NCBI GenBank assembly: GCA_903853805.1
Contig: CAINUN010000050.1
Location: forward strand, 1-64,000
Source: an uncultured Bacteroidota bacterium
GTDB lineage: Bacteria > Bacteroidota > Bacteroidia > Chitinophagales > Chitinophagaceae
DNA length: 64,000 nt
Direction: 5' to 3'
The translations under genes were made by a program, and so were the position numbers. The notes under the pieces are model-generated. The model worked only from the letters and a program-made list of their open reading frames with translations, made no database searches and had not been told where the DNA came from. Below are positions 7,324-24,764 of this stretch, one piece after another (within the stretch, counting starts at the first letter, position 1; each line of letters starts with the position of its first letter).

Positions 7324-7370
7324 TAGCTAACCATAGTTACCATATAGACAAATCGTTCTATGTAAATTTG
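7324..7370 (+). promoter_or_regulatory. Palindrome site 1 (TAGCTA-ACCA-TAGTTA) + 23 bp + -7 box TAAATTTG, upstream of TPR kinase
   Basis: Read directly; palindrome 7324-7339, -7 box 7363-7370. Confidence 0.75.
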
Positions 7371-7408
7371 CCTTTGTTCAAACTATAGAAATTTACTTGT
7401 TTTATTTT

Positions 7409-9550
7409 ATGATTCGTATTAAGACTTTTATTGGTAAATATATCTACTTAGCTGTTTTTTTACTTTCTCTCTTCTTCATTAATTGCAATACCAAAACAAA
7501 ATCACTACAAATTAAGCCCTATGATAGTTTAGGGGTTGCCCTAGATTCTGGTTTTCGAATGTCGCAAAGAGGAGAAGAGACTGCATCTATTAACTATATC
7601 AAGAGTATTTTAAACAGAAAAAGACTAAACTATTTTGATCAATATTGGTTGTATAGCTTTATTGCCGATAATTATACTTATCGTATTAGAAATAACGATT
7701 CTGCAAAATACTATTGGCGTTTAATGCTTTCATTTATTGATGACAAAGAAATAAATGATACTATTAATCAAATGCGTGCTAATGTTTATAATGGGTTAGG
7801 GATAATTTATAATAGGGAGCAAAATTTCGACTCACCCATCATGTATTATGACAATGGGTTAGAGATATTAAAGGATTCTAAAGATTCGATATTTCATGCT
7901 ATTTACTTAAGGAGAATTGCAATGACTTATTATCAGCAAGAACTTTATGAAAAAGCAAGCTGTTTATTTATTGAATCTTTAATATGTTTACAACCCAGTA
8001 TAGCTAATTTAAAAGAGCAAAATATAAATAGGACTAAAGATAATAATTATTTTAGAGATACCTATATTGCTCAGGAAGTTATAGACAATATAGGTTTGTG
8101 CTATTACAATTTAAGAAATTATGACACCGCTATTTATTATTATCGAAAATGTATAGACTTTATTAATTGTTATGCACCCTTATTTCCAATAAATAAAGAA
8201 GGCTGGCAGGGAGCAAAAGGAGTTGTATTTGATAATATAGCAACTTCATTCGAAGCCATAAAAAAAGATGATTCTGCATTATATTATTACCAACAATCTT
8301 TGAGTATTTCAGATAGCCTTGTTGGCGATAACTTTGAAAACATGAGCACTAAAATTAAGTTATTTAATTTTTATGTCAAGAATAAAAATCTAGCCAAAGC
8401 AAAAATACTGTATAATGATATTGAATCCTTAGTAAAGAATAGCACACTCAGTCATCATGATAAATTGCGCCTACTCTTTGCAACATCTCAATATTATCAA
8501 TTGACGGGAGCTAAAGAATTGGCATACGATTATTTAATTCAATGGAAGCTAGAAAATGAAAAATATGAAATCGACCTGAATAAATCTGTAAACAATCAAT
8601 TGCTCGAAAATATCAATCAATATGAAAGTGATTTAAAGATAAAAGAACTAAAAATCAAAGCACTTAGTACAAATCAAAGGTTTATTTTCTTTTCAGGATT
8701 CATGCTCTTGATTATATTAATTTTCATTTGCTACTTTTATTTCAACCAAAGATTAATGAAGCAGCTTCAATCCCATATTGAAGCTAAAGAAATATTATTA
8801 TTACAATTAGAAAATGAAAAGAAAACACAAGAAGTTTTAGCAAATAAATTTGCGATAAAGAATCTAGAAAAAGATTTTTTAATAAGAAGTGTAGTGCATG
8901 ATTTATTAAACCCTCTTGCAGGTATTATGCTAAACATAGAAATTCATGAACTAAAGCAAAGCATATCTCAATCGCACGATGACTTATTAAATAAAATCAA
9001 GGGGATGGTAAGCAATATGATTATTATTTGTAACGATATGATTGATTTTAGTAGCAATAAAACTTTTAACTTAACCTTTGTAATAGATAATCTTATTAAG
9101 ACCGTCTCGGAAGCTGTAGAAAATATCAAACCAATTACTGAAAACAAAAAACAAACGGTAAATATACTTACTGAAAACAACAATGAAATTATTAGCTCAT
9201 ATGACTCTGAAAAAATAATAAGATTGCTGGTAAATTTATTAAACAATGCCAGTAAATTTAGCAAAGTAGGCGGGCAGATTGACATTCATATTTTTGATCA
9301 AAAAAATAAAGTAATAATTAAAGTATCCGATCATGGCGTTGGAATGCCAGTTTCAATATTAGATAAAATATTTTCACAACAAGAAGTAGTGGGGTCTCTT
9401 GGCACTTCAGGAGAAAAATCGAATGGGATTGGACTATATATATGCAAACAAATTGTTACTGCCCATAATGGAATAATTGAAGTGGACAGCAAGTTGGGTG
9501 AAGGCACTAGCTTTACCATCACACTGCCTAAGCACAAAACTATTGACTAG
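7409..9550 (+). CDS. TPR-repeat membrane sensor histidine kinase
   Basis: Signal/lipobox-like N-term, TPR-like helices, TM FIFFSGFMLLIILIFICYFYF, H-box VVHDLLNPLAGI, N/G boxes LLNNASKF, GVGMP, GIGLYICKQI. Confidence 0.9.
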   Translation: MIRIKTFIGKYIYLAVFLLSLFFINCNTKTKSLQIKPYDSLGVALDSGFRMSQRGEETASINYIKSILNRKRLNYFDQYWLYSFIADNYTYRIRNNDSAKYYWRLMLSFIDDKEINDTINQMRANVYNGLGIIYNREQNFDSPIMYYDNGLEILKDSKDSIFHAIYLRRIAMTYYQQELYEKASCLFIESLICLQPSIANLKEQNINRTKDNNYFRDTYIAQEVIDNIGLCYYNLRNYDTAIYYYRKCIDFINCYAPLFPINKEGWQGAKGVVFDNIATSFEAIKKDDSALYYYQQSLSISDSLVGDNFENMSTKIKLFNFYVKNKNLAKAKILYNDIESLVKNSTLSHHDKLRLLFATSQYYQLTGAKELAYDYLIQWKLENEKYEIDLNKSVNNQLLENINQYESDLKIKELKIKALSTNQRFIFFSGFMLLIILIFICYFYFNQRLMKQLQSHIEAKEILLLQLENEKKTQEVLANKFAIKNLEKDFLIRSVVHDLLNPLAGIMLNIEIHELKQSISQSHDDLLNKIKGMVSNMIIICNDMIDFSSNKTFNLTFVIDNLIKTVSEAVENIKPITENKKQTVNILTENNNEIISSYDSEKIIRLLVNLLNNASKFSKVGGQIDIHIFDQKNKVIIKVSDHGVGMPVSILDKIFSQQEVVGSLGTSGEKSNGIGLYICKQIVTAHNGIIEVDSKLGEGTSFTITLPKHKTID

Positions 9551-9592
9551 TATATTACCTTATATTCATTCACTACCATATTGAATGTGCAT

Positions 9593-9620
9593 AAAAAAAG
9601 CTCTTGAAAAATCAAGAGCT
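9593..9620 (-). terminator. intrinsic terminator
   Basis: 8-bp stem AGCTCTTG/CAAGAGCT followed by T7 on the minus strand. Confidence 0.8.
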
Positions 9621-9660
9621 AACCAAAAAAATCCGTTTAAATATTATGCCAGATAAACGT
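9593..9660 (-). ncRNA. candidate sRNA 1 (about 65-70 nt)
   Basis: From the site 2 promoter to intrinsic terminator AGCTCTTG-ATTTTT-CAAGAGCT-T7 (minus); contains CGTTTA...TAAACG hairpin; no ORF. Confidence 0.45.
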
Positions 9661-9664
9661 AGTG

Positions 9665-9711
9665 CAATAATAACTTGTACTAAGCCTCTAGAAAATAACT
9701 ATTGATAGTAA
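9665..9711 (-). promoter_or_regulatory. Palindrome site 2 (minus: TTACTA-TCAA-TAGTTA) + 23 bp + -7-like TATTATTG, upstream of candidate sRNA
   Basis: Palindrome 9696-9711, -7 box 9665-9672. Confidence 0.6.
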
Positions 9712-9713
9712 CA

Positions 9714-10796
9714 TTAGTGTTTACTAACGATAAAACTTATTATATTATCTTCCTCTTTTATAGTAAAGTCTAATTCCATTAATGCACATAGTTTTTTAAC
9801 AAGGTATAACCCTATTCCTAAACCAGACATAGCCGATTCGGCATGGAATTTCTTAAATTGTTTAATGTTTGCAACATTCAAATTCAGTGGGCTTTTTACC
9901 TGATTAATGAAAGACAACTCAAAGCCTTGCCCACTCTTTCTTAATGTAATAATTGGACTAGAATCCCCTACGTGAAACTGTATCATGTTATCAATCAACT
10001 CATCAATAATGAGTCGAAGATGTTCACTACTACAGGTACAATCATCCACTTCTTCAGCAATTAATTTTACATGATCTAAATAATGCGTATTATGCATGTT
10101 AAGCTCATCCATAGACTTCACTAGTATATCATGAATATTATTGGATTCTGAAGTGGTTATTTGAATTTCGTTGTTAATATCATTGGCAAGCAATGAATAG
10201 GTTAGTAATTTCTTGGTATTGCGCAACATTCGCTGCCCGGAAACATATATTGAATCAATAAGGACTTTTAATTCAACTAAATGTTCTTCTGGAATTGACA
10301 TTTCCAACATGAAACCGGCAGATAATATGCCATTTAAAGGGGTAAGAAATTCGTGGTTAAAATTATTATTGAGCATTTCAAGCCACTTTTTGCCTACTTC
10401 ATTATTAATAACATTGTTCTCTGTTTCCTTTTTGAGTAATCTAGAATTTACCGCATCTAAAATAGTAGCTATTGAAAACGGCTTGGTTATATAGTCATCT
10501 GCACCAAGATTCATTCCTTTTCTTACATCTTGCTTTTCTGCAAAAGCGGTCAAAAAAATAAACGGTGTTCTTATGTATTTAGGATAGGTTCTAGCAACAT
10601 TTAAAATCTCATATCCATCGATATCGGGTAAATTAATATCGCAAAGAATGAGATCATATTCATTTTCTCGGATGCAATCAAGTGCGGCTCTACCATCAGA
10701 AGCCAAGGTAGCATTGAAGTTGTTTAGTTTCAACATATCCACCAAGCTATTGCCTATATTATATTCGTCTTCAACAATTAGTAAGTTATAATTCAT
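9714..10796 (-). CDS. receiver-histidine kinase hybrid (N-terminal REC, C-terminal HisKA/HATPase)
   Basis: LLIVEDEYNIGNSLVDML...LILCDINLPDIDGYE; NHEFLTPLNGIL; GLGIGLYLVKKL. Confidence 0.88.
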   Translation of the reverse strand: MNYNLLIVEDEYNIGNSLVDMLKLNNFNATLASDGRAALDCIRENEYDLILCDINLPDIDGYEILNVARTYPKYIRTPFIFLTAFAEKQDVRKGMNLGADDYITKPFSIATILDAVNSRLLKKETENNVINNEVGKKWLEMLNNNFNHEFLTPLNGILSAGFMLEMSIPEEHLVELKVLIDSIYVSGQRMLRNTKKLLTYSLLANDINNEIQITTSESNNIHDILVKSMDELNMHNTHYLDHVKLIAEEVDDCTCSSEHLRLIIDELIDNMIQFHVGDSSPIITLRKSGQGFELSFINQVKSPLNLNVANIKQFKKFHAESAMSGLGIGLYLVKKLCALMELDFTIKEEDNIISFIVSKH

Positions 10797-10799
10797 AAT

Positions 10800-13199
10800 T
10801 TAATCGCAGCTAAGAAGTTTTTTGGAATTATTTATAAAAGGAATTTTTAAGGTGAATGTTGAGCCAATATTTATTTGGCTATCAATATGTATCAGCCCTC
10901 CATGTGCTTTAGTTATGTAATCAGTCAGCATAAGACCAATGCCTGTCCCTTGTATTCTAGCAGCATTACTACATCTAAAAAAACTAGTAAAAACTTGATT
11001 CATTTCATCCGGTGGTATGCCTATACCAAAGTCTTGAACTTCAATAATGACACAATCTTTATCTTTTTGCAAATTTAATATTGGGCTTGTTTTCCCTGAT
11101 GAGTACTTAAATGCATTATTGAGTATATTGATTATTGCATGTTTCAACATTCTTTTACAAAAATACACATCAATTTTTTCATCGCTTGTATGAACCGTTA
11201 GTTCTCTTCCATCTGAAAATGGACTAAATAAATCTGTTACAATTTCCTTGATATAGGCTACAATATTTCCCTGCTGAAATACAAAAGCCTCTACCCCCTC
11301 CTCTATCCTACCCACTACGGTAAGTTCTGTAAGCGTTTGGTTCATTCTTTGCACTTCTTTGATGATTCTATTGAGGTAAATATCATAATCATTGGTTGTT
11401 GAAGAAGCTTGTGCATCTCTTTTAAGAATTAACTGCAGCAATTCTGAATTTGTCATAATTGCTGCTAAAGGGGTTCTTAACTCATGGGAAGTAATTCGGA
11501 TGAATCGGGTTTTGAGTTCATTTAAATCCTTTTCTTTTTCGAATAAGTTTTCAAGGCTTTTTTCTCTCAAAACCATTTCCGTAATATCTTTATATTGCCA
11601 AAGATGCCCTAAATAGTTTTGCTCATGAAAAATTGGAATATAATCTCTTGAAAAAATACGCCCATCATTCATCTCTAATAGGTGACCAATATGTGTTGTT
11701 TTGTTTTTAAGATTAATTTCAATGTCTTCTATGAATTTATCGGGATTTTTAAATAGTGATTTTGACTGTTCAGACGCATTCTTACAATCCATACCAATTA
11801 ATGCAATTGGTTTTACAGGTATATTAAATATTCTACAAAACTCATCGTTTACAATAGCAATTTTCCTACTACTATCTTCCACCAAAATACCGGTTTGGAG
11901 ATTTTCAATTAATTTAGTAAGTCGGTTAGTGGTAGTTAATGCTTCTAATTCAAGGGTTCTTAGTACTGTAATATCAGAAATTGTCCCTACAATTTTAAGA
12001 GGAGTTCCACCGGCAGAAAATTCGAATGCTTTACCACGAGAAAGGATGTGTTTTTCATTGCCAAATTTGTCCCTAATTTGATAATCTTGTATGAAAACAG
12101 AGTTATTCTTAGTTAAACTAAAAAACTTTCGTGTACCCTCTTCAAAATCATGATGATCTACATTATTCTGAAAAGTTGTTTCATCAAAAACCTCACCATC
12201 ATCATATCCGAATATTTTTTTGTAGGCGTTGGAAAAGAAATACTCAATAGATAAATTTTTACCAGTCATTACTTTCCAAACCCCATCACCTGAAGCTTCA
12301 AAAGCATAATCTAGTAGTTTTTTACTCTCTAATAGTTCTTGTTCAATTTTCTTTCTTTCACTAATATCTTCCTCAATTGAAAAATACCGTATCACATTAC
12401 CATCTTCATCAAATATTGGTTGAATTTGAACTTTTGCCCAATGATGACTTCCATCTTTGTGGTAATTAATGACTTCAATGGTTCTGTTTTGTTTTCTTCT
12501 AATTGCATCTAGTACTTCATAATTAGATTGTTCTGTTGTTAAAGGACCAGATAAAAAATCATTAGGCACTTTACCTACAATTTCTTTTAGAGAATAACCA
12601 TATGTCTTTTCAAAACCTTTATTTACCCATTCAATTTCATTTTCTTTATTGGTAATTATCACTGCATTGGTAGTTTCTTCAGCAATGAGTGAAAGTTTTT
12701 CTAATTCTGATTTTTGTTTTTTATAGATTTCCAATACACTTAATATATCGTTTATTGACAACTTGTGTGTATGAATAAGATTTAAATAATCAAACGTTGG
12801 ATCTAGTGAACCTAACTGTTTATAGTCAATACCTGAAAGATGAAACTCCTCAATGGAATGAAACCATGGAAAACCAGCAAACAAATAAGTATTGCTAGAT
12901 TGATTATAGTAAATATTACCTCTCAGGATAAAATTTTCTTTTGACTTAAATTTAATTAAAAAATTAGCGTTTTTATTTTCATTAATTAATTCGATTAAAG
13001 GGATACCTTCTGAATAAGGTCTGATTATTTCGAATACATTGTGGAATTTTTTTCCATTAATTTGACCAATATTTTGACCAATGGAATTGCCATAAGATAC
13101 AATCTCAAGTTCTTGATTAAAGGAGAAGTAGAAAGGGAATAATTGCTCAAAAACATCAAAGTCAAGGTAATTAGTTTTCATAGGACGCGTATTTACCAT
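10800..13199 (-). CDS. cytosolic HNOBA-PAS-PAS sensor histidine kinase (putative H-NOX partner kinase)
   Basis: N-term LFPFYFSFNQELEIVSYGNSIGQ...LRGNIYYNQSSNTYLFAGFPWFHSIEEFHLSGIDYKQLGSLDPTFDYL resembles HNOBA of soluble guanylate cyclase; PAS repeats; H-box RITSHELRTPLAAI; no TM. Confidence 0.85.
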   Translation of the reverse strand: MVNTRPMKTNYLDFDVFEQLFPFYFSFNQELEIVSYGNSIGQNIGQINGKKFHNVFEIIRPYSEGIPLIELINENKNANFLIKFKSKENFILRGNIYYNQSSNTYLFAGFPWFHSIEEFHLSGIDYKQLGSLDPTFDYLNLIHTHKLSINDILSVLEIYKKQKSELEKLSLIAEETTNAVIITNKENEIEWVNKGFEKTYGYSLKEIVGKVPNDFLSGPLTTEQSNYEVLDAIRRKQNRTIEVINYHKDGSHHWAKVQIQPIFDEDGNVIRYFSIEEDISERKKIEQELLESKKLLDYAFEASGDGVWKVMTGKNLSIEYFFSNAYKKIFGYDDGEVFDETTFQNNVDHHDFEEGTRKFFSLTKNNSVFIQDYQIRDKFGNEKHILSRGKAFEFSAGGTPLKIVGTISDITVLRTLELEALTTTNRLTKLIENLQTGILVEDSSRKIAIVNDEFCRIFNIPVKPIALIGMDCKNASEQSKSLFKNPDKFIEDIEINLKNKTTHIGHLLEMNDGRIFSRDYIPIFHEQNYLGHLWQYKDITEMVLREKSLENLFEKEKDLNELKTRFIRITSHELRTPLAAIMTNSELLQLILKRDAQASSTTNDYDIYLNRIIKEVQRMNQTLTELTVVGRIEEGVEAFVFQQGNIVAYIKEIVTDLFSPFSDGRELTVHTSDEKIDVYFCKRMLKHAIINILNNAFKYSSGKTSPILNLQKDKDCVIIEVQDFGIGIPPDEMNQVFTSFFRCSNAARIQGTGIGLMLTDYITKAHGGLIHIDSQINIGSTFTLKIPFINNSKKLLSCD

Positions 13200-13735
13200 G
13201 ACAATTTAAATAGTTCGTGGTACTTTCCATTTTCAAAAGAGTTCATCTTTTCAATATTCATTTCAATTGAAAACCTTTTGCCAACACCTTTTAATAACCC
13301 TACCATAAACTCCATTAAGCCAGATCGAGTACTAATATAATGAAAAACCATCGCATTGTCTTCAATGTTGGTTACTTCAAAAATGGGTGGCGTCATTTTA
13401 GGATACATAAGAATGACCTTGTTGTGGAAATCAACTAGATTAATCAAGAAATCCTTTACATTATCCCCTAGGGTTTTCAACATCACGCCATAGTTTTTTT
13501 CTGCTGTATGCAAAACCCAAAATTCACCAAATGCATTTAAAAACTGATCTAATGGTGTCTGTGATAATTCGGCAGCATGAACCACTAAACTAAACGTTAA
13601 TTCATCGGAATAAGGTTCAGTATTTAAAAAGAAGTCAATGTCTGTATTGCTTTTTTTGAGCACTTTATTCCAGGTTTCAACACCATAGTTGGATGCAACA
13701 AATTCTTTGAGTGAATTATTAACAAGTCCGTACAT
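13193..13735 (-). CDS. H-NOX (heme NO/O2-binding) protein
   Basis: 180 aa, starts MYGLVNNSLKEFV; proximal His104 (LVDFHNKV); Y133-I-S135-T-R137 = YxSxR heme-propionate motif. Confidence 0.93.
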   Translation of the reverse strand: MYGLVNNSLKEFVASNYGVETWNKVLKKSNTDIDFFLNTEPYSDELTFSLVVHAAELSQTPLDQFLNAFGEFWVLHTAEKNYGVMLKTLGDNVKDFLINLVDFHNKVILMYPKMTPPIFEVTNIEDNAMVFHYISTRSGLMEFMVGLLKGVGKRFSIEMNIEKMNSFENGKYHELFKLSW

Positions 13736-13738
13736 GTA

Positions 13739-14107
13739 TTATGATGTTAAAGTTAGCAATTTAGGTAAATCAATAGGTTTGCTTAAGTATGCCTTTATCA
13801 ACCCAGTGTTAATCTCTCTATGTTTTTTTTCCATTTCAAAACTTATTTTATCAACTGTAGAAATAATAATCACTTCAGGTTTAAGATTTTTATAAGTTTC
13901 GTTATTTGATAACTCTTGCAAAAATTCGTAACCATTCATTACAGGCATATTCAAATCCAATAATACCAATGAAATATCTTGGTTTTCCATTAGTACATTA
14001 AGTGCAATTGCACCATTTTCAGCAATAAGGGTTTTATATCCATGTAGTTCTAAAAAACTTTTAAGAATAAAACAATTCAACCTCTCATCTTCTACAATTA
14101 AAATCAT
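13739..14107 (-). CDS. single-domain response regulator receiver (CheY-like)
   Basis: MILIVEDERLNCFILKSFL...LVLLDLNMPVMNGYEFLQEL...YLSKPIDLPKL. Confidence 0.9.
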   Translation of the reverse strand: MILIVEDERLNCFILKSFLELHGYKTLIAENGAIALNVLMENQDISLVLLDLNMPVMNGYEFLQELSNNETYKNLKPEVIIISTVDKISFEMEKKHREINTGLIKAYLSKPIDLPKLLTLTS

Positions 14108-14754
14108 ATGTTTTCATTAAATTTAAAATTAATCAAATCATACTTGTTGTTTATGTTTAACTTTTTATACGAATTTTTTATGTGTTGATTAACCGTATGA
14201 TAGGAGATATCCAATATTGAAGAAATTTCTTTGTAACTATATCCTTGTTGTAATAAATCAACCACTCTTTTTTCTCTTGCAGATAATAATTCCAGGCGAA
14301 TATTAAATAGGTTAAACTTCTTTTTGTTCAACACTTTCATTAACTTTTGAGTCAATTCAAAGGATAAATAGTGCCCTTTTTCATTTACAATTTCAATGGT
14401 GTCAATTAATGTCGACATACTAAAAGGTTTTAGTAAATAACCAACTGCACCATTTTCAATGGACTTCATCAAGATATTATCATTCTCATCTCCTGTCAAA
14501 ATTAACACCTTTGCACTTGGGAAATATTTCTGTATTTGGGAAATATTTTCAATACTTATTCCATCTCTTAAATGAACATCGAGTAGTATAATATCTACAG
14601 GGGAATTAATTGACCCCTCGGTGAGTTCAGCGTATCTTGAAATAGCAAATGAAACTACAATATTCTCTCTTGTTTTTAAGTAGTCGCAAATTGAATCCCT
14701 TAGAATGATGTTGTCTTCTAAGATACCAATGTGAATCAAATTATTTCTGGTCAT
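14104..14754 (-). CDS. NarL/LuxR-family response regulator (RR-A)
   Basis: REC domain (ILEDN, ILLDVHLRDG, YLLKPFS) plus GerE HTH LLSAREKRVVDLLQQGYSYKEISSILDISYHTVNQHIKNSYKKLNI. Confidence 0.92.
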   Translation of the reverse strand: MTRNNLIHIGILEDNIILRDSICDYLKTRENIVVSFAISRYAELTEGSINSPVDIILLDVHLRDGISIENISQIQKYFPSAKVLILTGDENDNILMKSIENGAVGYLLKPFSMSTLIDTIEIVNEKGHYLSFELTQKLMKVLNKKKFNLFNIRLELLSAREKRVVDLLQQGYSYKEISSILDISYHTVNQHIKNSYKKLNINNKYDLINFKFNENI

Positions 14755-14798
14755 TTGTTTTTGTTATTTATTGTATATACGACTTGATGCTATTAGTG

Positions 14799-14844
14799 CA
14801 AAATTATAGCTACCTACCTCCTAAAAAATAACTATTGTTAGTTA
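14799..14844 (-). promoter_or_regulatory. Palindrome site 3 (TAACTA-ACAA-TAGTTA on minus) + 22 bp + TAATTTTG, promoter of the RR-A/H-NOX operon
   Basis: Palindrome 14829-14844, -7 box 14799-14806, both perfect. Confidence 0.82.
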
Positions 14845-14998
14845 CTGCCCAACCAATAACATATGGGTAATTAGACCTTCTACATAAAGCTGATAATATA
14901 GGTCGTATAAACGTTGATAAATACCATGAGATTTTTAATCATTTATTGGATGTAAAACAATTTTCACTTCACATAAATCAAAACACAATACCAATAAA

Positions 14999-15045
14999 TA
15001 CCTTAGAATAGTTATTGTTCAGTATTATAAATGTACCAAAATTTG
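14999..15045 (+). promoter_or_regulatory. Palindrome site 4 (TACCTT-AGAA-TAGTTA) + 23 bp + -7-like AAAATTTG, upstream of RR-B
   Basis: Palindrome 14999-15014 (degenerate left arm), -7-like 15038-15045. Confidence 0.6.
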
Positions 15046-15055
15046 TAGAAAAAAT

Positions 15056-15730
15056 ATGAATCTGTCAGAAACCCAAAAGAAAATTAATATTGGTATCCTT
15101 GAAGATGACTATTCATTTAGAGAATCCCTCTCAAAATACTTAACATCAACTGAACGATTTGAAGTGAAATTTGGTCTTTTAAGTTTAACCGAATTATTAC
15201 TAAAAGGATATGATTCTCAGTTTGTAGATATCGTACTATTGGACCTACACCTTAAGGATGGATTATGTATTAATAACATAATAAGTATTCACAAAATATT
15301 CCCGTTTTCAAAAATAATAATACTAACGGGCGATGATGATGAAATGAATATATTAAATGCAATTGAAAATGGAGCGAATGGCTTTGTAAACAAACCATTA
15401 AGTATGAATAAATTGATTGAAATTATCATGAAGGTTTATGAATATACTGTATATTTTGAGACAGAACAAGTATACAATTTGGTAAAATTATTAAAAAGGA
15501 GAAAGTTAGAGTTTTTAAACAACACAGCTTTAAATTTAACATTAAAACAAAGACAGGTATTGAAGTTTCTTAGATTAGGTAAAAGCCAGAAGGAAATTGC
15601 AGAAGCAATGAACATTTCAAACGGGTCTGTCAATCAGCACATTAAAAATTTATACAGAAAGAATAATATAGATTCTAAGTCTAGTGTGATGGATTTATTG
15701 GATATCATTTCATTGCAGGAAGCGAGATAA
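15056..15730 (+). CDS. NarL/LuxR-family response regulator (RR-B), paralog of RR-A
   Basis: REC (ILEDD, VLLDLHLKDG, FVNKPLS) plus GerE HTH LTLKQRQVLKFLRLGKSQKEIAEAMNISNGSVNQHIKNLYRKNNI. Confidence 0.92.
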   Translation: MNLSETQKKINIGILEDDYSFRESLSKYLTSTERFEVKFGLLSLTELLLKGYDSQFVDIVLLDLHLKDGLCINNIISIHKIFPFSKIIILTGDDDEMNILNAIENGANGFVNKPLSMNKLIEIIMKVYEYTVYFETEQVYNLVKLLKRRKLEFLNNTALNLTLKQRQVLKFLRLGKSQKEIAEAMNISNGSVNQHIKNLYRKNNIDSKSSVMDLLDIISLQEAR

Positions 15731-15773
15731 CTAACAATAGTTATTTAATATAATCAATAATACAATAATTTTG
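15728..15773 (+). promoter_or_regulatory. Palindrome site 5 (TAACTA-ACAA-TAGTTA) + 22 bp + TAATTTTG
   Basis: Perfect palindrome 15728-15743 whose first 3 nt are the RR-B stop codon; -7 box 15766-15773. Confidence 0.8.
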
Positions 15774-15779
15774 CCCCTC

Positions 15780-15862
15780 ATGTTTAAAATTATTTAGGGC
15801 TTTATTCTTATTGCTTTAAATATTTTGTGAGAAAAAAAACTGCCCAATAGGGCAGTTTTTTT
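15780..15862 (+). ncRNA. candidate sRNA 2 (about 80 nt)
   Basis: Starts just after site 5 -7 box, ends at terminator AACTGCCC-AATA-GGGCAGTT-T5; no meaningful ORF. Confidence 0.55.
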
Positions 15863-15863
15863 C
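15837..15863 (+). terminator. intrinsic terminator
   Basis: AAAACTGCCC-AATA-GGGCAGTTTTTTT. Confidence 0.85.
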
Positions 15864-15880
15864 TATTGATAAACACAATA

Positions 15881-15926
15881 CCACTAATGATAGTTATTGT
15901 CTATAAAAAATATGGAAATATCTTTG
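15881..15926 (+). promoter_or_regulatory. Palindrome site 6 (CCACTA-ATGA-TAGTTA) + 22 bp + TATCTTTG
   Basis: Palindrome 15881-15896; -7 box 15919-15926; TTG at 15897-15899 gives TTG-N19-TAnnTTTG. Confidence 0.78.
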
Positions 15927-15932
15927 CAAATA

Positions 15933-16101
15933 GTAAATTCTATTTATAAGAAATAATCTTTAAAATAGCAGGTAATGAAAAATTATCCTGAAGTAGTAAC
16001 TGATAATATGCTCATAGGAACAATAAGTTACTGAAGGATTTCTTTAATGAATGGGGCCACGTTAAAGAGTAGAGGTCTTGTCTATACAAGACCTTTTTTT
16101 T
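15933..16101 (+). ncRNA. candidate structured sRNA 3 (about 165 nt)
   Basis: Four consecutive hairpins: CAGGTAAT/ATTATCCTG, AGTAACT/AGTTACT, TCTTTAA/TTAAAGA (GGGGCC-containing loop), terminator AGGTCTTG/CAAGACCT-T7. Confidence 0.6.
16073..16101 (+). terminator. intrinsic terminator
   Basis: AGGTCTTG-TCTATA-CAAGACCTTTTTTTT. Confidence 0.85.
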
Positions 16102-16189
16102 ATGTAAATAACTGTTGTCTTTTAATTTTTTAGGAAGAGCAAAATATTTTTCAGTTACTGCAAATGTTTTTAAAAAAAACTTTAGAAAA

Positions 16190-16246
16190 TACCTAATAAT
16201 AGGTATTGTTTTTGTTTTGATGTTTCAATCTTACCGGTTACCTTTG
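16190..16246 (+). promoter_or_regulatory. Palindrome site 7 (TACCTA-ATAA-TAGGTA) + 33 bp + TACCTTTG
   Basis: Perfect palindrome 16190-16205; TTG 16217-16219 N19 TACCTTTG 16239-16246. Confidence 0.72.
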
Positions 16247-16252
16247 CCTAAG

Positions 16253-16440
16253 TTTTTTGATGTTTTTAGAGTTTAGTGTAAATAAGAATCGTTGATGTCC
16301 ATCTTCATTTCTTCTTTACCCAATTGATTTACACTAATTCCTTTCAATTGATTTAATAAATTGATTTAAAAACATTTATTCCTTTTTCTCCATTCTCTCC
16401 TTATATAATCTGGGGGCTTTTCCAAGCCCCCTTTGCTTTT
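16253..16440 (+). ncRNA. candidate sRNA 4 (about 185 nt)
   Basis: From site 7 promoter to terminator GGGGGCTT-TTCC-AAGCCCCC followed by TTTGCTTTTTT; carries three AATTGATTTA repeats; only tiny sORFs. Confidence 0.5.
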
Positions 16441-16442
16441 TT
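16412..16442 (+). terminator. intrinsic terminator
   Basis: GGGGGCTT/AAGCCCCC 8-bp stem with T-rich tail. Confidence 0.82.
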
Positions 16443-16557
16443 AATCATCAATAGATTTATAACTTTTCAGCTAAAAGGCTATCCTACTGATAGACACCGG
16501 TTGAGGATATTCTAACAAAAAATTGCCTCAATATTTTTTCTATAGTAAGGCTGTCAA

Positions 16558-19500
16558 TTAATTCCTAAACGTAAATAGCAAATTATTGATCTCAGCAATC
16601 GAAAATGGTTTGCCTATAGAATATTTTACTCCATGTTCTTGTTTTTCTTGTTCGTTTATTTGCCAACCGCTTACCACACAAACAGGAATAGTACCTTTAT
16701 ATTTTTCTTTGATTGCATCTGCCAATTGCCAACCACTCATTTCTGGCATGCCTATATCGGTCAATACTATATCATAAGTATTTTGCTCGAGGAACTCCAA
16801 GGCTTGTTGCCCACTATTGGCAGTATCACATTGATGTCCAATTATGTTTATCAACTCAATGATGCTTGTTCTAATAATATCATCATCTTCTACCCATAAA
16901 ATATTGAGTTTTGCTTCTTTTTTGTGTAGTTGTTCTTTAGTTATCATTTCTTCTAATTTTTCCTGTTGTTTGTTGTAGGGGAGTGTCATTTCAATTGTGG
17001 TGCCGCTACCTATTTCTGATGAAACTACATAGATATCGCCGCCATAACTTTTCACTATAGAATAAACACCACTCATGCCTAGCCCTCTACCCGCTTCAAA
17101 TCCTTTTGTGGAATAGAACGGTTGGAATATTTTGGATTTGGTCTCTTCATTCATGCCTATTCCTGTGTCTGTGAAGGTTATTATTGCTTTCCTTCCTTTT
17201 GAGTGGGTAGCAATAGTCAAATTTCCACCCTCGGGCATTGCTTCTAAGCTGTTTTTTATAATGTTGTGAATAGCCGTTTTTATTTCACCCTCATTGCATT
17301 GAACATAAAGACTTTTAGAAAATGCAGTGTCTATATGAATATGCTTTCCTTCTTTTTCCAATTTATCTTTCCATATTGGACGTAGCTGAAGGATTACTTC
17401 ACTGATAATGGGATTGACATTTATTAATTGGTGATTATCTGTCCCTTGTTTGTTGTCTCCAAATCGCTGCATCAATTTTACTCTGCTCGACACATCTGCT
17501 AACAGGGTTTCAATGATTTTTAAATAACCTATGGTTGCCTCCGCTAAATTTCCCTTGAATTTGATGATTTCAATATAGCCGAGCATTGCCTGTAGCGAGT
17601 TATTAAAATCATGGGCTACGGAAGCAGCCATTTCGCCAACCGCCATTAACCTTTGACTTTCAATTGCCGCCTTTTCAGCCTTTTTACGATCTGTAATATC
17701 TCGTATAATGTACAAAAGCACGTTTTTGCCTTCTAATTCAAAATATCTACCACTTAATTCTACATTCATCTCTTTGCCTTCTTTGGTTAAATGAATGGAC
17801 TCAAACGTCACCTTCCTTTTTTCTATTAACTCTTTCAATGCAGGGAGGTCTTTATTAATAAAAGTAACAGGATCTACAAGGTCGCTTGGATGCATATTGA
17901 AGAATTCTGCCCTTGTGTACCCATATTTTTCGCAGGCTATTTCATTCACATCGATAAGTATACTAAAATTGCCATCCTTGTCTAATTGACGAACAAACAT
18001 TGGGTCGTTGCCTAGATTGAAAATATCTTTGAATTTCTCTTCATTTTTCTCTGCGGCTTCTTTGGCATGGCGTAATTCGGAGGTTCTAATTTCTACTTGC
18101 TTTGCAAGATCTTCTTTTGCTTGTAGAATTACTTGTTCCGCAATTTTTCTGTCGGTAACGTCTAAGCTAATGCCACCCAACAGGGGTTCTTTTCCTTGTC
18201 GGTCTATTCTAAACTTTTGGGTTTCGTATATATGGTGTTCTCCATTGACATCAGGAACCGATTCTTCAATTCTTAAATAGCCCTTTGCTAATGAATTCTT
18301 ATCATCAATGGTTATTTGTTGCCCAAATTCATTGGGGAATAAATCTACCATTGCTTTTCCAAGCCAATCTTTAGCCCCTAAGACTTCGATCATGTATTTG
18401 TTGGTAAAAATGAGGCGTCCTTCATGGTCTTTTAAAAATGCCACACCAGGCAAGTAATCCATAAATTGTGAAAACATGGATTCGCTTTCTGCTAAGGCAG
18501 CGGTTTGTATTACTATTTCGTTTTCTGCTTCTTTGCGTTGGCTAATATCTCGAATGATGGAAAGCACTTCATGCTCGGAAATAGCTATAAATCTGTTTTC
18601 GAAATGACAGTCTTTCCCTTGAATATCTAGTTGATACTCGAAGGATACGACTTCATTGGAAGCAATCGCTTTTTCAATAGCTTCCAATGATTGGGCTACA
18701 ACATTGGGCGGAAGTATTTGATGGATGTTTTTGCCCGTAAGCGTTTCTTTAGGGGCAATCAGTAATGATTCGTCTGTGCTAAGGCAATCTAAATAAGTAC
18801 CATCTCTGTGGATACGCAACATTAAATCGGGCAAGGCTTGAATGATGGCGCGGTTTTCGGCTTCGTTTTTTCGGCTTGCTTCTTCTAGTGCTTTTCGTTC
18901 GGAAATGTCATCAAATATGGCTACAAAAAATCCTTTTTTAGGACAATAACATGAAACGTGAAAATGCCTTTTAAAGGTGTTGGAAAAATAATCCATGGTA
19001 AATGGTTCGCCCGTTAAAGCAACATTGCCATACTTTCTTATCATGTTGATGTCGGCATTGGGCAATATTTGCTTAATGGTTTTACCACGAACTTCTTCAA
19101 TATCATAGCCGGTGAATTGCTTCATGTTTTTATTGCCGTCTATGAAATTAAAGTCAATCGGTTGGTTGTTTTCATCGACAAATACCTCACTGAGTTGAAA
19201 ACCAGAAATCATGTTTTCGAATAGGTAGTGGTATTTTGATTCGCTTTCAATAATATTTTTTCGAGCAAATTTTATTTCGGTATTGTCGATAGAGACAACT
19301 ACTACCCCAACAATTGACCCATCGTTGTCTTTTATGGGACTCAATGAATTTTCAACAAAATGGATTCCGTCAGTAGAATAAAAATGACTTTCTACTATAA
19401 ATTCTTCTCCCAGAAAACATTTGTCGTAATTGGTTTTCCAGAAGTCAAGAAAATCTTGTGGATATTCGTTTGTAAGGACATTTTGTCCTAATTGCATTGC

Positions 19501-19635
19501 ATTTACGCCAGAAGCAATCAATGTATTTTGGTAAGTTTCGTTAGCAAACAATAGACAATATTGACGATCGATAGCCCAAATGATGCCTTTGGTATGTAGC
19601 AATATTTGCTTTAAAACTTCTATTTGACTTGTCAT
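16558..19635 (-). CDS. multi-PAS hybrid sensor histidine kinase/response regulator
   Basis: Repeated PAS/PAC (ITDRKKAE), VAHDFNNSLQAMLGYIEI H-box, GRGLGMSGVYSIVKSYGG, C-terminal receiver LWVEDDDIIRTSI...VLTDIGMPEMSGW. Confidence 0.92.
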   Translation of the reverse strand: MTSQIEVLKQILLHTKGIIWAIDRQYCLLFANETYQNTLIASGVNAMQLGQNVLTNEYPQDFLDFWKTNYDKCFLGEEFIVESHFYSTDGIHFVENSLSPIKDNDGSIVGVVVVSIDNTEIKFARKNIIESESKYHYLFENMISGFQLSEVFVDENNQPIDFNFIDGNKNMKQFTGYDIEEVRGKTIKQILPNADINMIRKYGNVALTGEPFTMDYFSNTFKRHFHVSCYCPKKGFFVAIFDDISERKALEEASRKNEAENRAIIQALPDLMLRIHRDGTYLDCLSTDESLLIAPKETLTGKNIHQILPPNVVAQSLEAIEKAIASNEVVSFEYQLDIQGKDCHFENRFIAISEHEVLSIIRDISQRKEAENEIVIQTAALAESESMFSQFMDYLPGVAFLKDHEGRLIFTNKYMIEVLGAKDWLGKAMVDLFPNEFGQQITIDDKNSLAKGYLRIEESVPDVNGEHHIYETQKFRIDRQGKEPLLGGISLDVTDRKIAEQVILQAKEDLAKQVEIRTSELRHAKEAAEKNEEKFKDIFNLGNDPMFVRQLDKDGNFSILIDVNEIACEKYGYTRAEFFNMHPSDLVDPVTFINKDLPALKELIEKRKVTFESIHLTKEGKEMNVELSGRYFELEGKNVLLYIIRDITDRKKAEKAAIESQRLMAVGEMAASVAHDFNNSLQAMLGYIEIIKFKGNLAEATIGYLKIIETLLADVSSRVKLMQRFGDNKQGTDNHQLINVNPIISEVILQLRPIWKDKLEKEGKHIHIDTAFSKSLYVQCNEGEIKTAIHNIIKNSLEAMPEGGNLTIATHSKGRKAIITFTDTGIGMNEETKSKIFQPFYSTKGFEAGRGLGMSGVYSIVKSYGGDIYVVSSEIGSGTTIEMTLPYNKQQEKLEEMITKEQLHKKEAKLNILWVEDDDIIRTSIIELINIIGHQCDTANSGQQALEFLEQNTYDIVLTDIGMPEMSGWQLADAIKEKYKGTIPVCVVSGWQINEQEKQEHGVKYSIGKPFSIAEINNLLFTFRN

Positions 19636-19710
19636 AATATTATCACTTATTCAGGTTTGCAAATGAGCGCCTTTGTTGAGCGTAATGTTTAAAATGCTTT
19701 TTTATGGCTG

Positions 19711-19756
19711 CAATTTCTTAAAAATTATACCCTTTAAAAACACCTATAGTTAGTCA
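19711..19756 (-). promoter_or_regulatory. Palindrome site 8 (degenerate: TGACTA-ACTA-TAGGTG on minus), upstream of PAS kinase 16558..19635
   Basis: 19741-19756; -7-like AGAAATTG only weakly matches. Confidence 0.4.
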
Positions 19757-19894
19757 TCATCATTTAACAAGTTCATTGAAAAAGAGAAACTTAGGATGTT
19801 ACCTTTTTATCCTAGCGTTCTTCTAAAATGCAGGAGCCGTTTTTGATTTTTTTTACCCTGGTAAAAGAACAAAAACCGACTATTCCCACTTCAT

Positions 19895-20107
19895 TTCAAC
19901 GATTTTGCACTACTTAAGTCTAACTTTTTAGTGGTTTTGTGCAATGTTGCACTTCTGAAGTCTAACATATTAGTAACTTTGTGCGATGTTGCTCTTCCGA
20001 AGTCTAACATATTAGTAAAATTGTGTACTATTACACTTCCACAGTCTAACATTTTAGCAACTTGGTGCAAAATTGCACTGCTGAAGTCTAATCTTTTACA
20101 AACCAAG
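19895..20107. repeat. tandem array A, 42-bp unit, about 5 copies
   Basis: AAGTCTAAC-like start at 19916, 19958, 20000, 20042, 20084 (exact 42-bp steps); each unit has CTAA-N4-TTAG and GTGCA-N4-TGCAC-type dyads. Confidence 0.9.
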
Positions 20108-20145
20108 TTTACCATGAACATCAGAAGAAAAACAAGACCCGTTTT

Positions 20146-23100
20146 TTATTTATTTTTAAAGGTGAATAACAATTTATTGAGTGCTGCAATCGTAAAAGGT
20201 TTGTCTAAAGAATAGGCAACTCCATGTTCTTTTTTTTCTTCTTCGGTAACTTGCCAACCGCTGACTACACAAACAGGCATTGTGCCTTTAAATTTTTCTT
20301 TGATAGCATCTGCCAATTGCCAGCCCGTCATTTCGGTCATGCCTATGTCGGTCAATACAATATCATAGGTGTTTTTGTCAAGATATTCCAACGCAAGCTT
20401 TCCACTACTTGCAGTATCGCATTGATGACCAACTAATTGGATGATCTGTGAAATACTTTCTCTGATAATATCATCATCTTCCACCCATAAAACATGGAGT
20501 TTTTCATTCTTCTTGGCGGATTGTTCTTTTTGCGTAGTTGCTACTGATATTTCCTGTTGCTTTTTGAAAGGGAAATCAATTTCAATAGTAGTTCCTTGCC
20601 CAATTTCGGAGGAAACCACCTGAATATTACCACCAAAACTTTTCACCACACTATATACTCCACTCATGCCAAGCCCTCTGCCGGCTTCAAACCCTTTGGT
20701 GGAAAAGAACGGTTGAAAAATTTTTGATTTTGCCTCTTCATTCATTCCTATGCCAGTGTCAGTAAATGTTATCAATGCTTTTTGTCCTTTAATTTTTGTT
20801 TTGATGGACAAATTGCCACCATGAGGCATGGCTTCAATACTGTTCTTTAAGATATTGTGGATGGCTGTTTTTATTTCCCCTTCATTGCAATTAATGGGGA
20901 GGCTATCGCAAAAGGAGGTGTTGATATGAATGATATGTCCTTCTTTTTCTAAGCGGTCTTTCCACATTGGCCGAAGCTGTAGGACAACTTCGCTGATAAT
21001 GGGATTGAGATTAACAAGTTTATGGTCAATTACATTTTGTTTGCTATCGCCAAAACGCTGTAATAATTTCACCCTGCTCGATACATCGGTGACAAGCGTT
21101 TCAATGGTATTGATATAACCAAGGGCAGAGTCGGACAAGTTTTCTTTGAATTTGATGATTTCAATATTTCCTTTCATAGCCTGAAGTGTGTTGTTGAAAT
21201 CGTGGGCTATGGAAGAGGTCATTTCGCCTACTGCCGAGAGTCTTTGGTTTTCGATAATTGATTTTTCTGCCTGCTTCCGTTCTGTAATATCTTGAGAGAT
21301 GGAAATGCCGGCAAATATTTCTTTATTGAGATTGTAGATGGGCAGCACTTGCTGAAAAAAGGCCCTGTTATCGAACTGCCATTCAAAGCTATTTTTCTTT
21401 CCTTGAAGTGCAGACAAATAGTAGGGTTCTAATAGGTCAACAACCTCTTGGGGCAATGTTTCTGGTAGTTCTTTGCCTATTAATGCCGCCTTATTAAAGC
21501 CATTTTTGTCGATGTCTTCTCCACCAACTATCTGGAATCTTAAATTTTTGTCGAAAAGAAAAAAAGATGTGTTTGGGATAGATTCTATCAACAAACTATA
21601 TAATTGTTCACTTTCCTCTGCTTTGTTTTTGGCAATCATTAAATCGGCAGTGCGTTCTTCTACTAAAACGGAAAGGTCTTCTTTGGCTTTAAGAATTACG
21701 TTTTCTGCTTGTTTTCTTTCGGTAATATCTAATCCAATGCCTCCCAAAAGCGGTTCCTTCCCTGGTCGGTTGATGGTGAACTTTTGCAATTCAAAGTGAT
21801 GAACTACTCCATCAAGTTGGGGTACGGATTCTTCAAATTTATTATAGCTATTCGAAATTGCTTTCAAATCTCCTTTTGTCATTCTTTCGCCCAATTCATT
21901 AGGGTAAATCTCTGCCATTGTTTTGCCAACCCAACTATAGGCACCAAACGTTTCATTCATGTATTTGTTCACATAAAGCACGCGTCCTTCATGGTCTTTT
22001 ATGAATACGGTTGCGGGCAAATAATCCATAAACAACGAAAAACGCCATTCTATTTCACTCAAGGCAGCCTCTATTTGTTTGCGCTCGGTGATGTCGTTTA
22101 AGGAAGTCACACGCACATCCTTGTTCTTATACCGCATCATCCTGCCTTGCAACACACAAGGGAAAGTAGTGCCATCTTTTCTTAAAGCAGTGGCTTCGTA
22201 TGGTTTTTCGATACCCGACAGCATATTGTCCATCACCATTTGTCGGTCTTCGGGCACAATCCAATCGGTGCCATAACGGGTCAAGGCTTCTTCCGTTGTA
22301 TAGCCAAACATTTTTTCAGCAGCAAGGTTTTGTTCAATACATACCCCTTTTTCTGAGAAAAATATGGCTTCGAAAGAGGCTTCCGACAAGCCCCTGTATT
22401 TTTCTTGGCTTTCTCTAAAGTCTTCTTCTATCTTTTTACGATCAGTAATGTCTATTTTAACGGCTATAAAGCTGACAATATTGCCTTCCGAATCTAAAAC
22501 AGGGGTAATGATTTCCTCTTCGTAGTATAAAGTGCCATCTTTCCTTCGGTTTATCAATTCGCCCTTCCAAACCTTTTTTTCGAGTATTGTACTCCAAAAT
22601 GTTTTATAAAAATCAGCATCCTGCATCCCCGATTTTATCAGTTCACCCGGTCTCTTGCCAATAAATTCGTCAAAAGTGTATCCTGTAAGATGCGTAAAAG
22701 CTGAATTTGCCCATTGAATATAGCCGTCAATATTGGTAATAATGATGGCGTTTGCAAATGATTCAAAGGCGGCAGTTTGCAGTTTAATAGTGTTTTCCGC
22801 TTCTTTTCGCTCCGTAATATCTCGAATCATAGACAGTACTTCATGCTCCGAAATAGCAGTAATTCTATTTTCAAAATATCTATTCTGGTTTTGAACAGGA
22901 AGCATGTATTCAAAATGCTCTACCTCGCCACTTGTAAAAGCAAGCTCAAGGACCTGAAGTGATTTTTGGGCAAGAACCGGTGGCAACACCTCGTTTATTT
23001 TTTTGCCAATAAAAGCTTCTTTAGGCACAAAAAGAGAGGCTTCATTCGTGCTGATGAGATTTAAAAAGGTGCCGTCCTTATGAATGCGGAACATTAAATC

Positions 23101-24495
23101 GGGCACAGCTTGAATGATGGCACGGTTGTCGGCTTCGCTTTTTTGGAGTGCCTTCTTTGCTTCCTTTTCTTTGGTAATGTCAAGGGCTATGCCGATGTAT
23201 CCTTGCGACTTGCCCTCTGTTTTTTTAATAGAAGATAAGGTAAGATTAACAGGGAATTGTCGCCCATTTTTATGAACAAACGTCCATTCTTTAGTATTGA
23301 CTTTAGCACTATGCAATGCTTGTTGAATAGATTGAAAATCAATAGGAGCATTTCCTTCGTTTTCTAAGTCGATTTCCTTTACTCGACTTTCAAGTTCTTC
23401 AGGAAGATGAAAAATAGAGGGTCTCAGTTTACCAATCACTTCTTCGGCTTTATAGCCAAGCATTTCTTCGGCTGCCTTGTTGAAATGCTCAATGATGCCA
23501 TCAGCTGATGTGGATATGATAGCTAGGCCTGCATGTTGCAAAATAGCCTCTTGCATTATCATTGACTTACGCAGCTCTTCAGTTCTTTCTTCAACGCGCT
23601 TTTCTAGATTCTGGTTGGCTTCTTTCAGCAAATTGAGCGTTTCTTTTATGGCATTGTCTGCCATTTTTCTCTCTGAAATATCACGAATGATGCCTGTTAT
23701 TTTTTGTGGAACGCCTTTATCATCATAGATAAGGGCTGAAGAAACGGCAGCAGCAACAACAGAACCATCTTTGTTTGACAATGACAACTCATAATCCCTA
23801 AAACTTGATTCTTCAATTAGTTTTGCAATAGAACTTTCTCGATCACTTGGTTGCGTATAAAACGATGCCATAGATAGCCCTATGACATCTTCCCTTTTGT
23901 ATTGTCCTTTAGTAAAAAATTCAATAGAGGGACTCACTTCAAGTAAAATCCCATCAAAACTAGCCTCATAGTAAACATCTTGAATGCTTTCAAAAATACT
24001 GCGGTATTTTTCTTCGCTTTCTTTTAAGGCTATCTCTGTTTTTTTACGTTCCGAAATGTCAAAACAATGCCCGATATACCCAATAAATTCAGCTGTGCTG
24101 CTATAATTTGGCGTACCAATATCAAGTAGCCACCTATATTCACCACTAGCATGACGTAAACGGTATTCCATTTCAAATGGTTCGCGTTTATCGAATGAAG
24201 TAATATAGATATCAAGGCATTTATCAAAATCATCGGGATGAACACCTTCTGCCCAACCGTTGCCCACCTCTTGTTCTAAGGTTCTACCTGTAAATTGCAA
24301 CCAATTGTTGTTAAAATAGGTACACAGTTTATCAGTATCCGAAATCCAAATTAAGGCAGTACCCGCTTCAATTAAATGTTGGTATTGAACCTCAGATTCT
24401 TTCAGTTTACGTTCAGCAAGTGAGCGCGCATTTTCGGATTGTTCAAGCTTTGTTTTTAATGCTTGAAGTTCTTGTAAAACATCCTCATTGTTCAT
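20146..24495 (-). CDS. multi-PAS hybrid sensor histidine kinase/response regulator, 1449 aa, paralog of 16558..19635
   Basis: Many PAS/PAC repeats (DITERKQ), IAHDFNNTLQAMKGNIEIIKF, C-terminal receiver LWVEDDDIIRESI...VLTDIGMTEMTGW. Confidence 0.92.
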   Translation of the reverse strand: MNNEDVLQELQALKTKLEQSENARSLAERKLKESEVQYQHLIEAGTALIWISDTDKLCTYFNNNWLQFTGRTLEQEVGNGWAEGVHPDDFDKCLDIYITSFDKREPFEMEYRLRHASGEYRWLLDIGTPNYSSTAEFIGYIGHCFDISERKKTEIALKESEEKYRSIFESIQDVYYEASFDGILLEVSPSIEFFTKGQYKREDVIGLSMASFYTQPSDRESSIAKLIEESSFRDYELSLSNKDGSVVAAAVSSALIYDDKGVPQKITGIIRDISERKMADNAIKETLNLLKEANQNLEKRVEERTEELRKSMIMQEAILQHAGLAIISTSADGIIEHFNKAAEEMLGYKAEEVIGKLRPSIFHLPEELESRVKEIDLENEGNAPIDFQSIQQALHSAKVNTKEWTFVHKNGRQFPVNLTLSSIKKTEGKSQGYIGIALDITKEKEAKKALQKSEADNRAIIQAVPDLMFRIHKDGTFLNLISTNEASLFVPKEAFIGKKINEVLPPVLAQKSLQVLELAFTSGEVEHFEYMLPVQNQNRYFENRITAISEHEVLSMIRDITERKEAENTIKLQTAAFESFANAIIITNIDGYIQWANSAFTHLTGYTFDEFIGKRPGELIKSGMQDADFYKTFWSTILEKKVWKGELINRRKDGTLYYEEEIITPVLDSEGNIVSFIAVKIDITDRKKIEEDFRESQEKYRGLSEASFEAIFFSEKGVCIEQNLAAEKMFGYTTEEALTRYGTDWIVPEDRQMVMDNMLSGIEKPYEATALRKDGTTFPCVLQGRMMRYKNKDVRVTSLNDITERKQIEAALSEIEWRFSLFMDYLPATVFIKDHEGRVLYVNKYMNETFGAYSWVGKTMAEIYPNELGERMTKGDLKAISNSYNKFEESVPQLDGVVHHFELQKFTINRPGKEPLLGGIGLDITERKQAENVILKAKEDLSVLVEERTADLMIAKNKAEESEQLYSLLIESIPNTSFFLFDKNLRFQIVGGEDIDKNGFNKAALIGKELPETLPQEVVDLLEPYYLSALQGKKNSFEWQFDNRAFFQQVLPIYNLNKEIFAGISISQDITERKQAEKSIIENQRLSAVGEMTSSIAHDFNNTLQAMKGNIEIIKFKENLSDSALGYINTIETLVTDVSSRVKLLQRFGDSKQNVIDHKLVNLNPIISEVVLQLRPMWKDRLEKEGHIIHINTSFCDSLPINCNEGEIKTAIHNILKNSIEAMPHGGNLSIKTKIKGQKALITFTDTGIGMNEEAKSKIFQPFFSTKGFEAGRGLGMSGVYSVVKSFGGNIQVVSSEIGQGTTIEIDFPFKKQQEISVATTQKEQSAKKNEKLHVLWVEDDDIIRESISQIIQLVGHQCDTASSGKLALEYLDKNTYDIVLTDIGMTEMTGWQLADAIKEKFKGTMPVCVVSGWQVTEEEKKEHGVAYSLDKPFTIAALNKLLFTFKNK

Positions 24496-24629
24496 AATGC
24501 GCGTATTGCTATTGAAGTAAATGATTTATCTGTTGAATTGCCTACTCATACAAAACATTGCCTGACTATATGTTTAAATGCTTTCAAGCCAATCATAATT
24601 TGGAACGTACAATTTACACTAAATCATTA

Positions 24630-24676
24630 CAAAAATAACAGGCATTATTATGCCATAAAATAACTATGGTTAGTTA
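24630..24676 (-). promoter_or_regulatory. Palindrome site 9 (TAACTA-ACCA-TAGTTA on minus) + 23 bp + TATTTTTG, upstream of the 1449-aa PAS kinase
   Basis: Perfect palindrome 24661-24676; -7 box 24630-24637. Confidence 0.8.
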
Positions 24677-24748: not shown

Positions 24749-24764
24749 TAACTATGATTAGTTA
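24749..24764. promoter_or_regulatory. Palindrome site 10 (TAACTA-TGAT-TAGTTA), between the divergent PAS kinase and SWIM gene
   Basis: Perfect arms; no -7 box at standard spacing on either strand. Confidence 0.6.

What the first reader, a model, noticed from the sequence alone, without database searches (positions are those of the whole stretch)
15933..16101. sRNA 3 reads as a four-hairpin structured RNA with a G-rich loop
Seen directly: ordered complementary segments CAGGTAAT/ATTATCCTG (15969-15990), AGTAACT/AGTTACT (15995-16032), TCTTTAA/TTAAAGA (16041-16068) with loop TGAATGGGGCCACG, then terminator stem AGGTCTTG/CAAGACCT. It also contains a 19-codon ORF (15975-16034, MKNYPEVVTDNMLIGTISY), so a dual-function RNA or a small peptide signal is possible. 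Structure and function are inference.
Basis: partly seen in the sequence, partly recalled or inferred. Interest (0 to 1): 0.7.

Follow-up and report, generated by a model that had tools for sequence, protein, structure and literature searches.

The report
Small RNA gene in NO-sensor regulon
This is probably a short stand-alone regulatory RNA gene whose promoter carries the same operator as the neighbouring nitric-oxide-sensor (H-NOX) signalling genes; the four-hairpin shape and the 19-residue peptide proposed for it are not supported beyond chance.

Summary
Without it the RNA folds no better than 8-9% of shuffles. The 'G-rich-loop' hairpin holds only about 8% of the predicted ensemble, because the 5' end pairs with that segment instead. 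A 19-codon ORF appears in 18% of shuffles and has no coding signal. No homolog was found in Rfam, plasmids, phages or several hundred related genomes, so covariation cannot be tested.

What is well supported is the promoter. A palindrome, TAACTA-N4-TAGTTA, lies 22-23 nt upstream of a Bacteroidota -7 box (TAnnTTTG). The half-operator-plus-promoter pattern occurs six times in the 3.5-Mb genome, five of them within 17.3 kb of the window: upstream of the H-NOX operon (headed by a NarL/FixJ-type response regulator), two sensor kinases, a second small transcript ('sRNA2') and this RNA. Its operator is centred near -42, the class-II activator position.

Best explanation: an intergenic small RNA co-regulated with an H-NOX signalling island, probably acting by base pairing. 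Hfq and CsrA were not detected. Signal, sign of regulation and targets are inferred. It works like response-regulator-driven sRNAs (GacA-Rsm, LuxO-Qrr) but is a member of neither.

The parts
15881..15896 (+). operator of sRNA3: CCACTA-ATGA-TAGTTA, downstream half-site perfect, upstream half-site 2 mismatches to TAACTA
   Evidence: centre about -42.5 from the predicted start
15897..15926 (+). promoter of sRNA3: TTG (15897-15899), 19 nt, TATCTTTG (15919-15926; Bacteroidota -7 box TAnnTTTG)
   Evidence: sequence; pattern search; consensus and its -12 to -5 position from PMC9723704
15931..16101 (+). sRNA3, about 170 nt; predicted start 15931-15933, end in the T-run at about 16094-16101
   Evidence: promoter plus terminator geometry; no transcript data
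16071..16101 (+). intrinsic terminator of sRNA3 (11-bp stem, loop of 4, T-run)
15975..16034 (+). 19-codon ORF, probably chance
15728..15773 (+). perfect operator TAACTA-ACAA-TAGTTA plus promoter (TAATTTTG 15766-15773) of the neighbouring transcript 'sRNA2'
   Evidence: 45-nt promoter repeat shared with sRNA3, 71% identical (D1)
15778..15867 (+). sRNA2, predicted; ends in terminator CTGCCC-AATA-GGGCAG plus T-run
   Evidence: z -5.8 with terminator, -2.2 without
14799..14844 (-). perfect operator plus promoter (TAATTTTG) of the H-NOX operon, which starts with the response regulator 14104-14754
14104..14754 (-). NarL/FixJ-type response regulator (receiver plus GerE HTH), first gene of the H-NOX operon
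9714..14107 (-). rest of the operon: receiver 13739-14107, H-NOX 13193-13735, HNOBA-PAS-histidine kinase 10800-13199, receiver-HisKA-HATPase 9714-10796
14999..15045 (+). degenerate operator TACCTT-AGAA-TAGTTA plus TTG and AAAATTTG (5 of 6), promoter of response regulator 15056
15056..15730 (+). second NarL/FixJ-type response regulator (41% identical to the first)
7324..7370 (+). operator (1 mismatch) plus promoter TAAATTTG of the TPR-histidine kinase (ORF listed as 7397-9550, likely ATG 7410)
24630..24676 (-). perfect operator plus promoter TATTTTTG of the multi-PAS hybrid kinase 20146-24495
24749..24764 (.). perfect operator, promoter not assigned

Best explanation
15931-16101 is an intergenic small RNA gene. 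It is transcribed from a sigma-A promoter whose operator TAACTA-N4-TAGTTA abuts the -33 position, so that a NarL/FixJ-type response regulator (14104-14754 and/or its paralog 15056-15730) bound there would contact RNA polymerase as a class-II activator. The regulator gene heads the operon that encodes an H-NOX nitric-oxide sensor and its HNOBA-type kinase, so RNA output probably follows NO (or another kinase input) through phosphorylation of the regulator. The same operator lies upstream of the H-NOX operon, the second regulator, two further kinases and a sibling transcript (sRNA2), forming an autoregulated island. The RNA most likely acts by antisense pairing with mRNAs, without Hfq or CsrA. 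Shown by sequence: operator/promoter architecture, its rarity in the genome, terminator, operon content. Inferred: transcription, which regulator binds, activation rather than repression, NO as the signal, base pairing, targets.
For: Exact palindrome at five places in 3.5 Mb, four in this window, the fifth just upstream of a stand-alone receiver protein. TAGTTA-N(21-24)-TANNTTTG: six places genome-wide, five in the window, all five intergenic and pointing at a gene or an sRNA candidate, spacings 22-23; the 7334 site was not used to derive the pattern. Scored over 18 informative positions at spacing 22-23, the window has four sites at 17-18 and sRNA3's at 16; thirty shuffled windows gave one hit of 16 in total and none higher. 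The strict composite was found in one other of 399 family genomes. Terminator beyond chance. -7 consensus at -12 to -5 as in F. psychrophilum (PMC9723704). H-NOX aligns to Nostoc Alr2278 over 179 residues with the heme-ligand His and the YxSxR motif kept. Both regulators keep the phospho-acceptor Asp and share VNQHIKN in the recognition-helix region. CsrA and Hfq not detected, with working positive controls.
Against: No RNA-seq or TSS data. The upstream half-site of sRNA3 has two mismatches, so binding could be weaker. The operator motif was derived largely from this window. No homolog, so no conservation test of RNA or operator. Target search within the window gave nothing beyond shuffles. 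Class-II position is geometry only; a repressor could also sit there.
Confidence: 0.6

Rival explanations
1. The RNA is a short mRNA for the 19-residue peptide (or a dual-function RNA).
For: ATG at 15975 with an A-rich start (AGCAGGTAATGAAAAA); one distant alignment (L137) shares the start-codon stretch of a longer ORF.
Against: ORF this long in 17.7% of shuffles; codon score -1.5 bits; the ATG lies at the top of hairpin 1; no homolog with the frame.
Confidence: 0.08
2. A protein-binding decoy of the Rsm/CsrA-titrating kind, with GGA in loops.
For: GGA occurs in the loop of stem 2 (TAGGAAC) and between stems 2 and 3 (AAGGAT); Rsm RNAs are driven by a NarL/FixJ-type regulator (general knowledge).
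Against: No CsrA detected in this genome, while the search finds it in E. coli, B. subtilis and T. maritima; only two GGA.
Confidence: 0.04
3. Transcribed but without function of the RNA itself: a duplicated promoter/operator (the 45-nt repeat shared with sRNA2) firing into spacer DNA that ends at a terminator, or a site that mainly titrates the regulator.
For: 45-nt promoter repeat, 71% identical; no homolog of the transcribed part; folding beyond the terminator not significant.
Against: A dedicated strong terminator follows within 170 nt; two promoter-terminator units stand in tandem.
Confidence: 0.23
4. Not a gene: chance promoter-like and terminator-like matches in A/T-rich spacer.
For: No expression data; no conservation.
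Against: Operator-promoter composite is almost absent from shuffled windows and from the rest of the genome; terminator z -5.2.
Confidence: 0.05

Closest known systems
GacA/UvrY-activated Rsm/Csr small RNAs (RsmX, RsmY, RsmZ)
   Same: A NarL/FixJ-type response regulator with a palindromic operator drives stand-alone small RNAs that end in intrinsic terminators (palindromic upstream activating sequence mentioned in PMC2375449; the rest from general knowledge).
   Different: Operator abuts the -33 element and is shared with the regulator's own operon; no CsrA detected; only two GGA motifs; no sequence match in Rfam.
H-NOX-HqsK-LuxU-LuxO-Qrr circuit of Vibrio
   Same: H-NOX signalling feeds a response regulator that controls small RNAs (PMC6759604).
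   Different: Qrr RNAs work with Hfq and are driven by LuxO; here the regulator is NarL/FixJ-type, the promoter is of the sigma-A TAnnTTTG kind, and no Hfq is detected.
Bacteroidota intergenic sRNAs such as GibS (B. thetaiotaomicron) and Rfp18 (F. psychrophilum)
   Same: Free-standing, A/T-rich, TSS plus intrinsic terminator, no Hfq; GibS pairs with translation start regions (PMC7366714; PMC9723704).
   Different: Those are conserved within their genera; this RNA has no homolog found even in its own genus.

Membership tests
Intergenic Bacteroidota sRNA | Own promoter with the -7 box TAnnTTTG | tested here: met
   TATCTTTG 15919-15926
Intergenic Bacteroidota sRNA | Intrinsic terminator | tested here: met
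Intergenic Bacteroidota sRNA | No long ORF | tested here: met
   longest ATG ORF 19 codons, expected by chance
Intergenic Bacteroidota sRNA | Detected transcript | not testable with these tools
   no RNA data held
Described Rfam family | Score at or above the gathering cut-off | tested here: not met
Rsm/Csr decoy RNA | CsrA/RsmA partner in the genome | tested here: not met
Qrr-type RNA | Hfq partner in the genome | tested here: not met
Response-regulator-controlled promoter | Operator shared with the regulator's own operon at the same spacing from the promoter | tested here: met
Response-regulator-controlled promoter | Regulator binds the site | not testable with these tools
   needs EMSA or footprinting
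Conserved structured RNA | Covarying stems in homologs | tested here: inconclusive
   no homolog found

The most novel reading that the evidence does not exclude
An H-NOX nitric-oxide sensor operon in a Bacteroidota species controls, through a NarL/FixJ-type regulator and a dedicated operator, a tandem pair of new small RNAs that act without Hfq or CsrA: an independently evolved NO-to-sRNA circuit.
Probability: 0.35. Interest if true: 0.6.

Novelty: new member of a known kind. Interest (0 to 1): 0.42.

Why it matters
Little literature on H-NOX outputs in Bacteroidota turned up in the open library searched. A shared operator that can be read off the sequence gives a concrete, testable regulon: its own operon, further kinases and two small RNAs. 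If the RNAs are NO-responsive, this would be a second, unrelated wiring of H-NOX to small RNAs beside the Vibrio LuxO-Qrr circuit.

Tried and rejected
Homology: blastn of the RNA against 100 relatives and 399 genomes of the order, plasmids and phages, own genome for paralogs. Only short A/T-rich or in-gene matches; the best ones (L134-L138) were read in context and lie mostly in or at the edge of open reading frames, without a matching promoter-terminator unit. Rfam at the gathering threshold and permissively: no match to the RNA; the sub-threshold sRNA/leader hits cluster on the sRNA2 terminator. Peptide: rejected on ORF length and codon statistics. CsrA decoy and Hfq-dependent sRNA: rejected for lack of the partner. 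Sigma-70 TTGACA/TATAAT promoters: at chance level. Search for the same kind of operator-promoter next to regulator homologs of about 40% identity: no convincing one. In-window targets by duplex energy (33 start regions, sRNA2, a downstream transcript): best 7% of shuffles, nothing to report. The genome-contig search with regulator 15056 gave only distant relatives.

Full report
OBSERVATION. Tested against dinucleotide shuffles, the terminator (16071-16101) is far beyond chance (z -5.2), while the RNA without it is not (z -1.4, 8.7% of shuffles as good). The partition function shows hairpins 1 and 2 well formed but hairpin 3, the 'G-rich loop', at only about 8%: in the full-length RNA the 5' segment 15939-15955 pairs with 16036-16060 (mean probability about 0.77) and covers the first two or three Gs. 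The 'G-rich loop' is therefore a minority conformer in silico. The 19-codon ORF exists, but an ORF of that length appears in 18% of shuffles and has no codon signal.

WHAT IT IS. Immediately upstream lies a canonical Bacteroidota promoter, TATCTTTG (15919-15926), matching the -7 consensus TAnnTTTG placed at -12 to -5 in F. psychrophilum (PMC9723704), with TTG 19 nt further upstream. Directly abutting that TTG is CCACTA-ATGA-TAGTTA. The same element in perfect form, TAACTA-N4-TAGTTA, is found at 14829, 15728, 24661 and 24749 of the window and at only one other exact site in the 3.5-Mb genome, upstream of a stand-alone receiver protein. The composite TAGTTA-N(21-24)-TANNTTTG has six matches genome-wide. 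Five lie at window 7334-24666, each intergenic: upstream of a TPR-histidine kinase, the H-NOX operon, sRNA2, sRNA3 and a multi-PAS hybrid kinase. A weaker relative (-7 box 5 of 6) precedes regulator 15056. Scoring box and -7 box together, sRNA3's site reaches 16 of 18; thirty shuffled windows gave a single hit at that level. The motif was derived mainly from sites in the window, so the within-window count is partly circular; the genome-wide rarity and the 7334 site (not used to derive it) are independent. Across 399 genomes of the family the strict composite was found in one other genome only, so this is a lineage-specific wiring.

CONTEXT. The operon behind the 14799-14844 promoter reads: NarL/FixJ-type regulator (14104-14754), receiver (13739-14107), H-NOX (13193-13735), HNOBA-PAS-kinase (10800-13199), receiver-kinase (9714-10796), overlapping or within a few bases of each other. 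The H-NOX protein aligns end to end with Nostoc Alr2278 and keeps the heme-ligand His and YxSxR. A second regulator, 41% identical to the first, is 15056-15730; its stop codon overlaps the perfect operator of sRNA2. Both regulators keep the phospho-acceptor Asp and share VNQHIKN in the recognition-helix region, so either or both could bind the box. H-NOX occurs in 37 of 399 family genomes and was not found in the other six genus members searched.

HOW IT MOST LIKELY WORKS. With the start at about 15931, the operator is centred at about -42, the class-II activator position (general knowledge of NarL/FixJ and CRP-type activation). Signal to the H-NOX/HNOBA kinase, phosphorylated regulator, box, RNA polymerase, sRNA2 and sRNA3 plus amplification of the signalling genes themselves: this chain is inferred from arrangement; no step has been measured. 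The RNA most likely acts by antisense pairing as GibS does (PMC7366714); CsrA and Hfq were not detected. No target is proposed: the in-window scan was null.

KNOWN RELATIVES. By mode of action the closest are regulator-driven sRNAs: GacA-Rsm (PMC2375449), and the Vibrio H-NOX-HqsK-LuxO-Qrr chain (PMC6759604). It belongs to neither: the partner proteins are not detected and there is no sequence family. It fits the general class of Bacteroidota intergenic sRNAs on every feature testable here; transcription itself is untested.

LIMITS. One genome, no transcript data, no homologs; covariation is therefore untestable. Searches sampled related genomes, not all.

Noticed in passing
window 15728-15867 (+): Second small transcript ('sRNA2') with a perfect operator and promoter and a strong terminator; better folded than sRNA3 even without the terminator (z -2.2).
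   Followed up: partly
window 16190-16440 (+): Another palindrome TACCTA-ATAA-TAGGTA followed by TTG, a TACCTTTG box 33 nt downstream of it (11 nt further than the others, about one helical turn) and a terminator GGGGGCTTTTCCAAGCCCCC at 16412-16431: possible further small transcript.
   Followed up: partly
window 9696-9711 (-): One-mismatch operator with a near-consensus -7 box (TATTATTG) between two convergent kinase genes, pointing into the 3' end of the TPR-kinase: possible antisense RNA.
   Followed up: no
L032 1501-1998 (own genome C35:43518): The only perfect operator outside the window lies about 60 nt upstream of a 140-residue stand-alone receiver protein.
   Followed up: partly
window 24749-24764 and the gene after it: Perfect operator upstream of a possible reading frame starting near 24828, without a promoter at the usual spacing.
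   Followed up: no
own genome C16:148421-148960: Second H-NOX gene in the genome, 43% identical to the one in the window.
   Followed up: no
window 19891-20215: Repetitive short ORFs on both strands (repeats of the kind KMLDFGSA...), between two PAS kinases.
   Followed up: no
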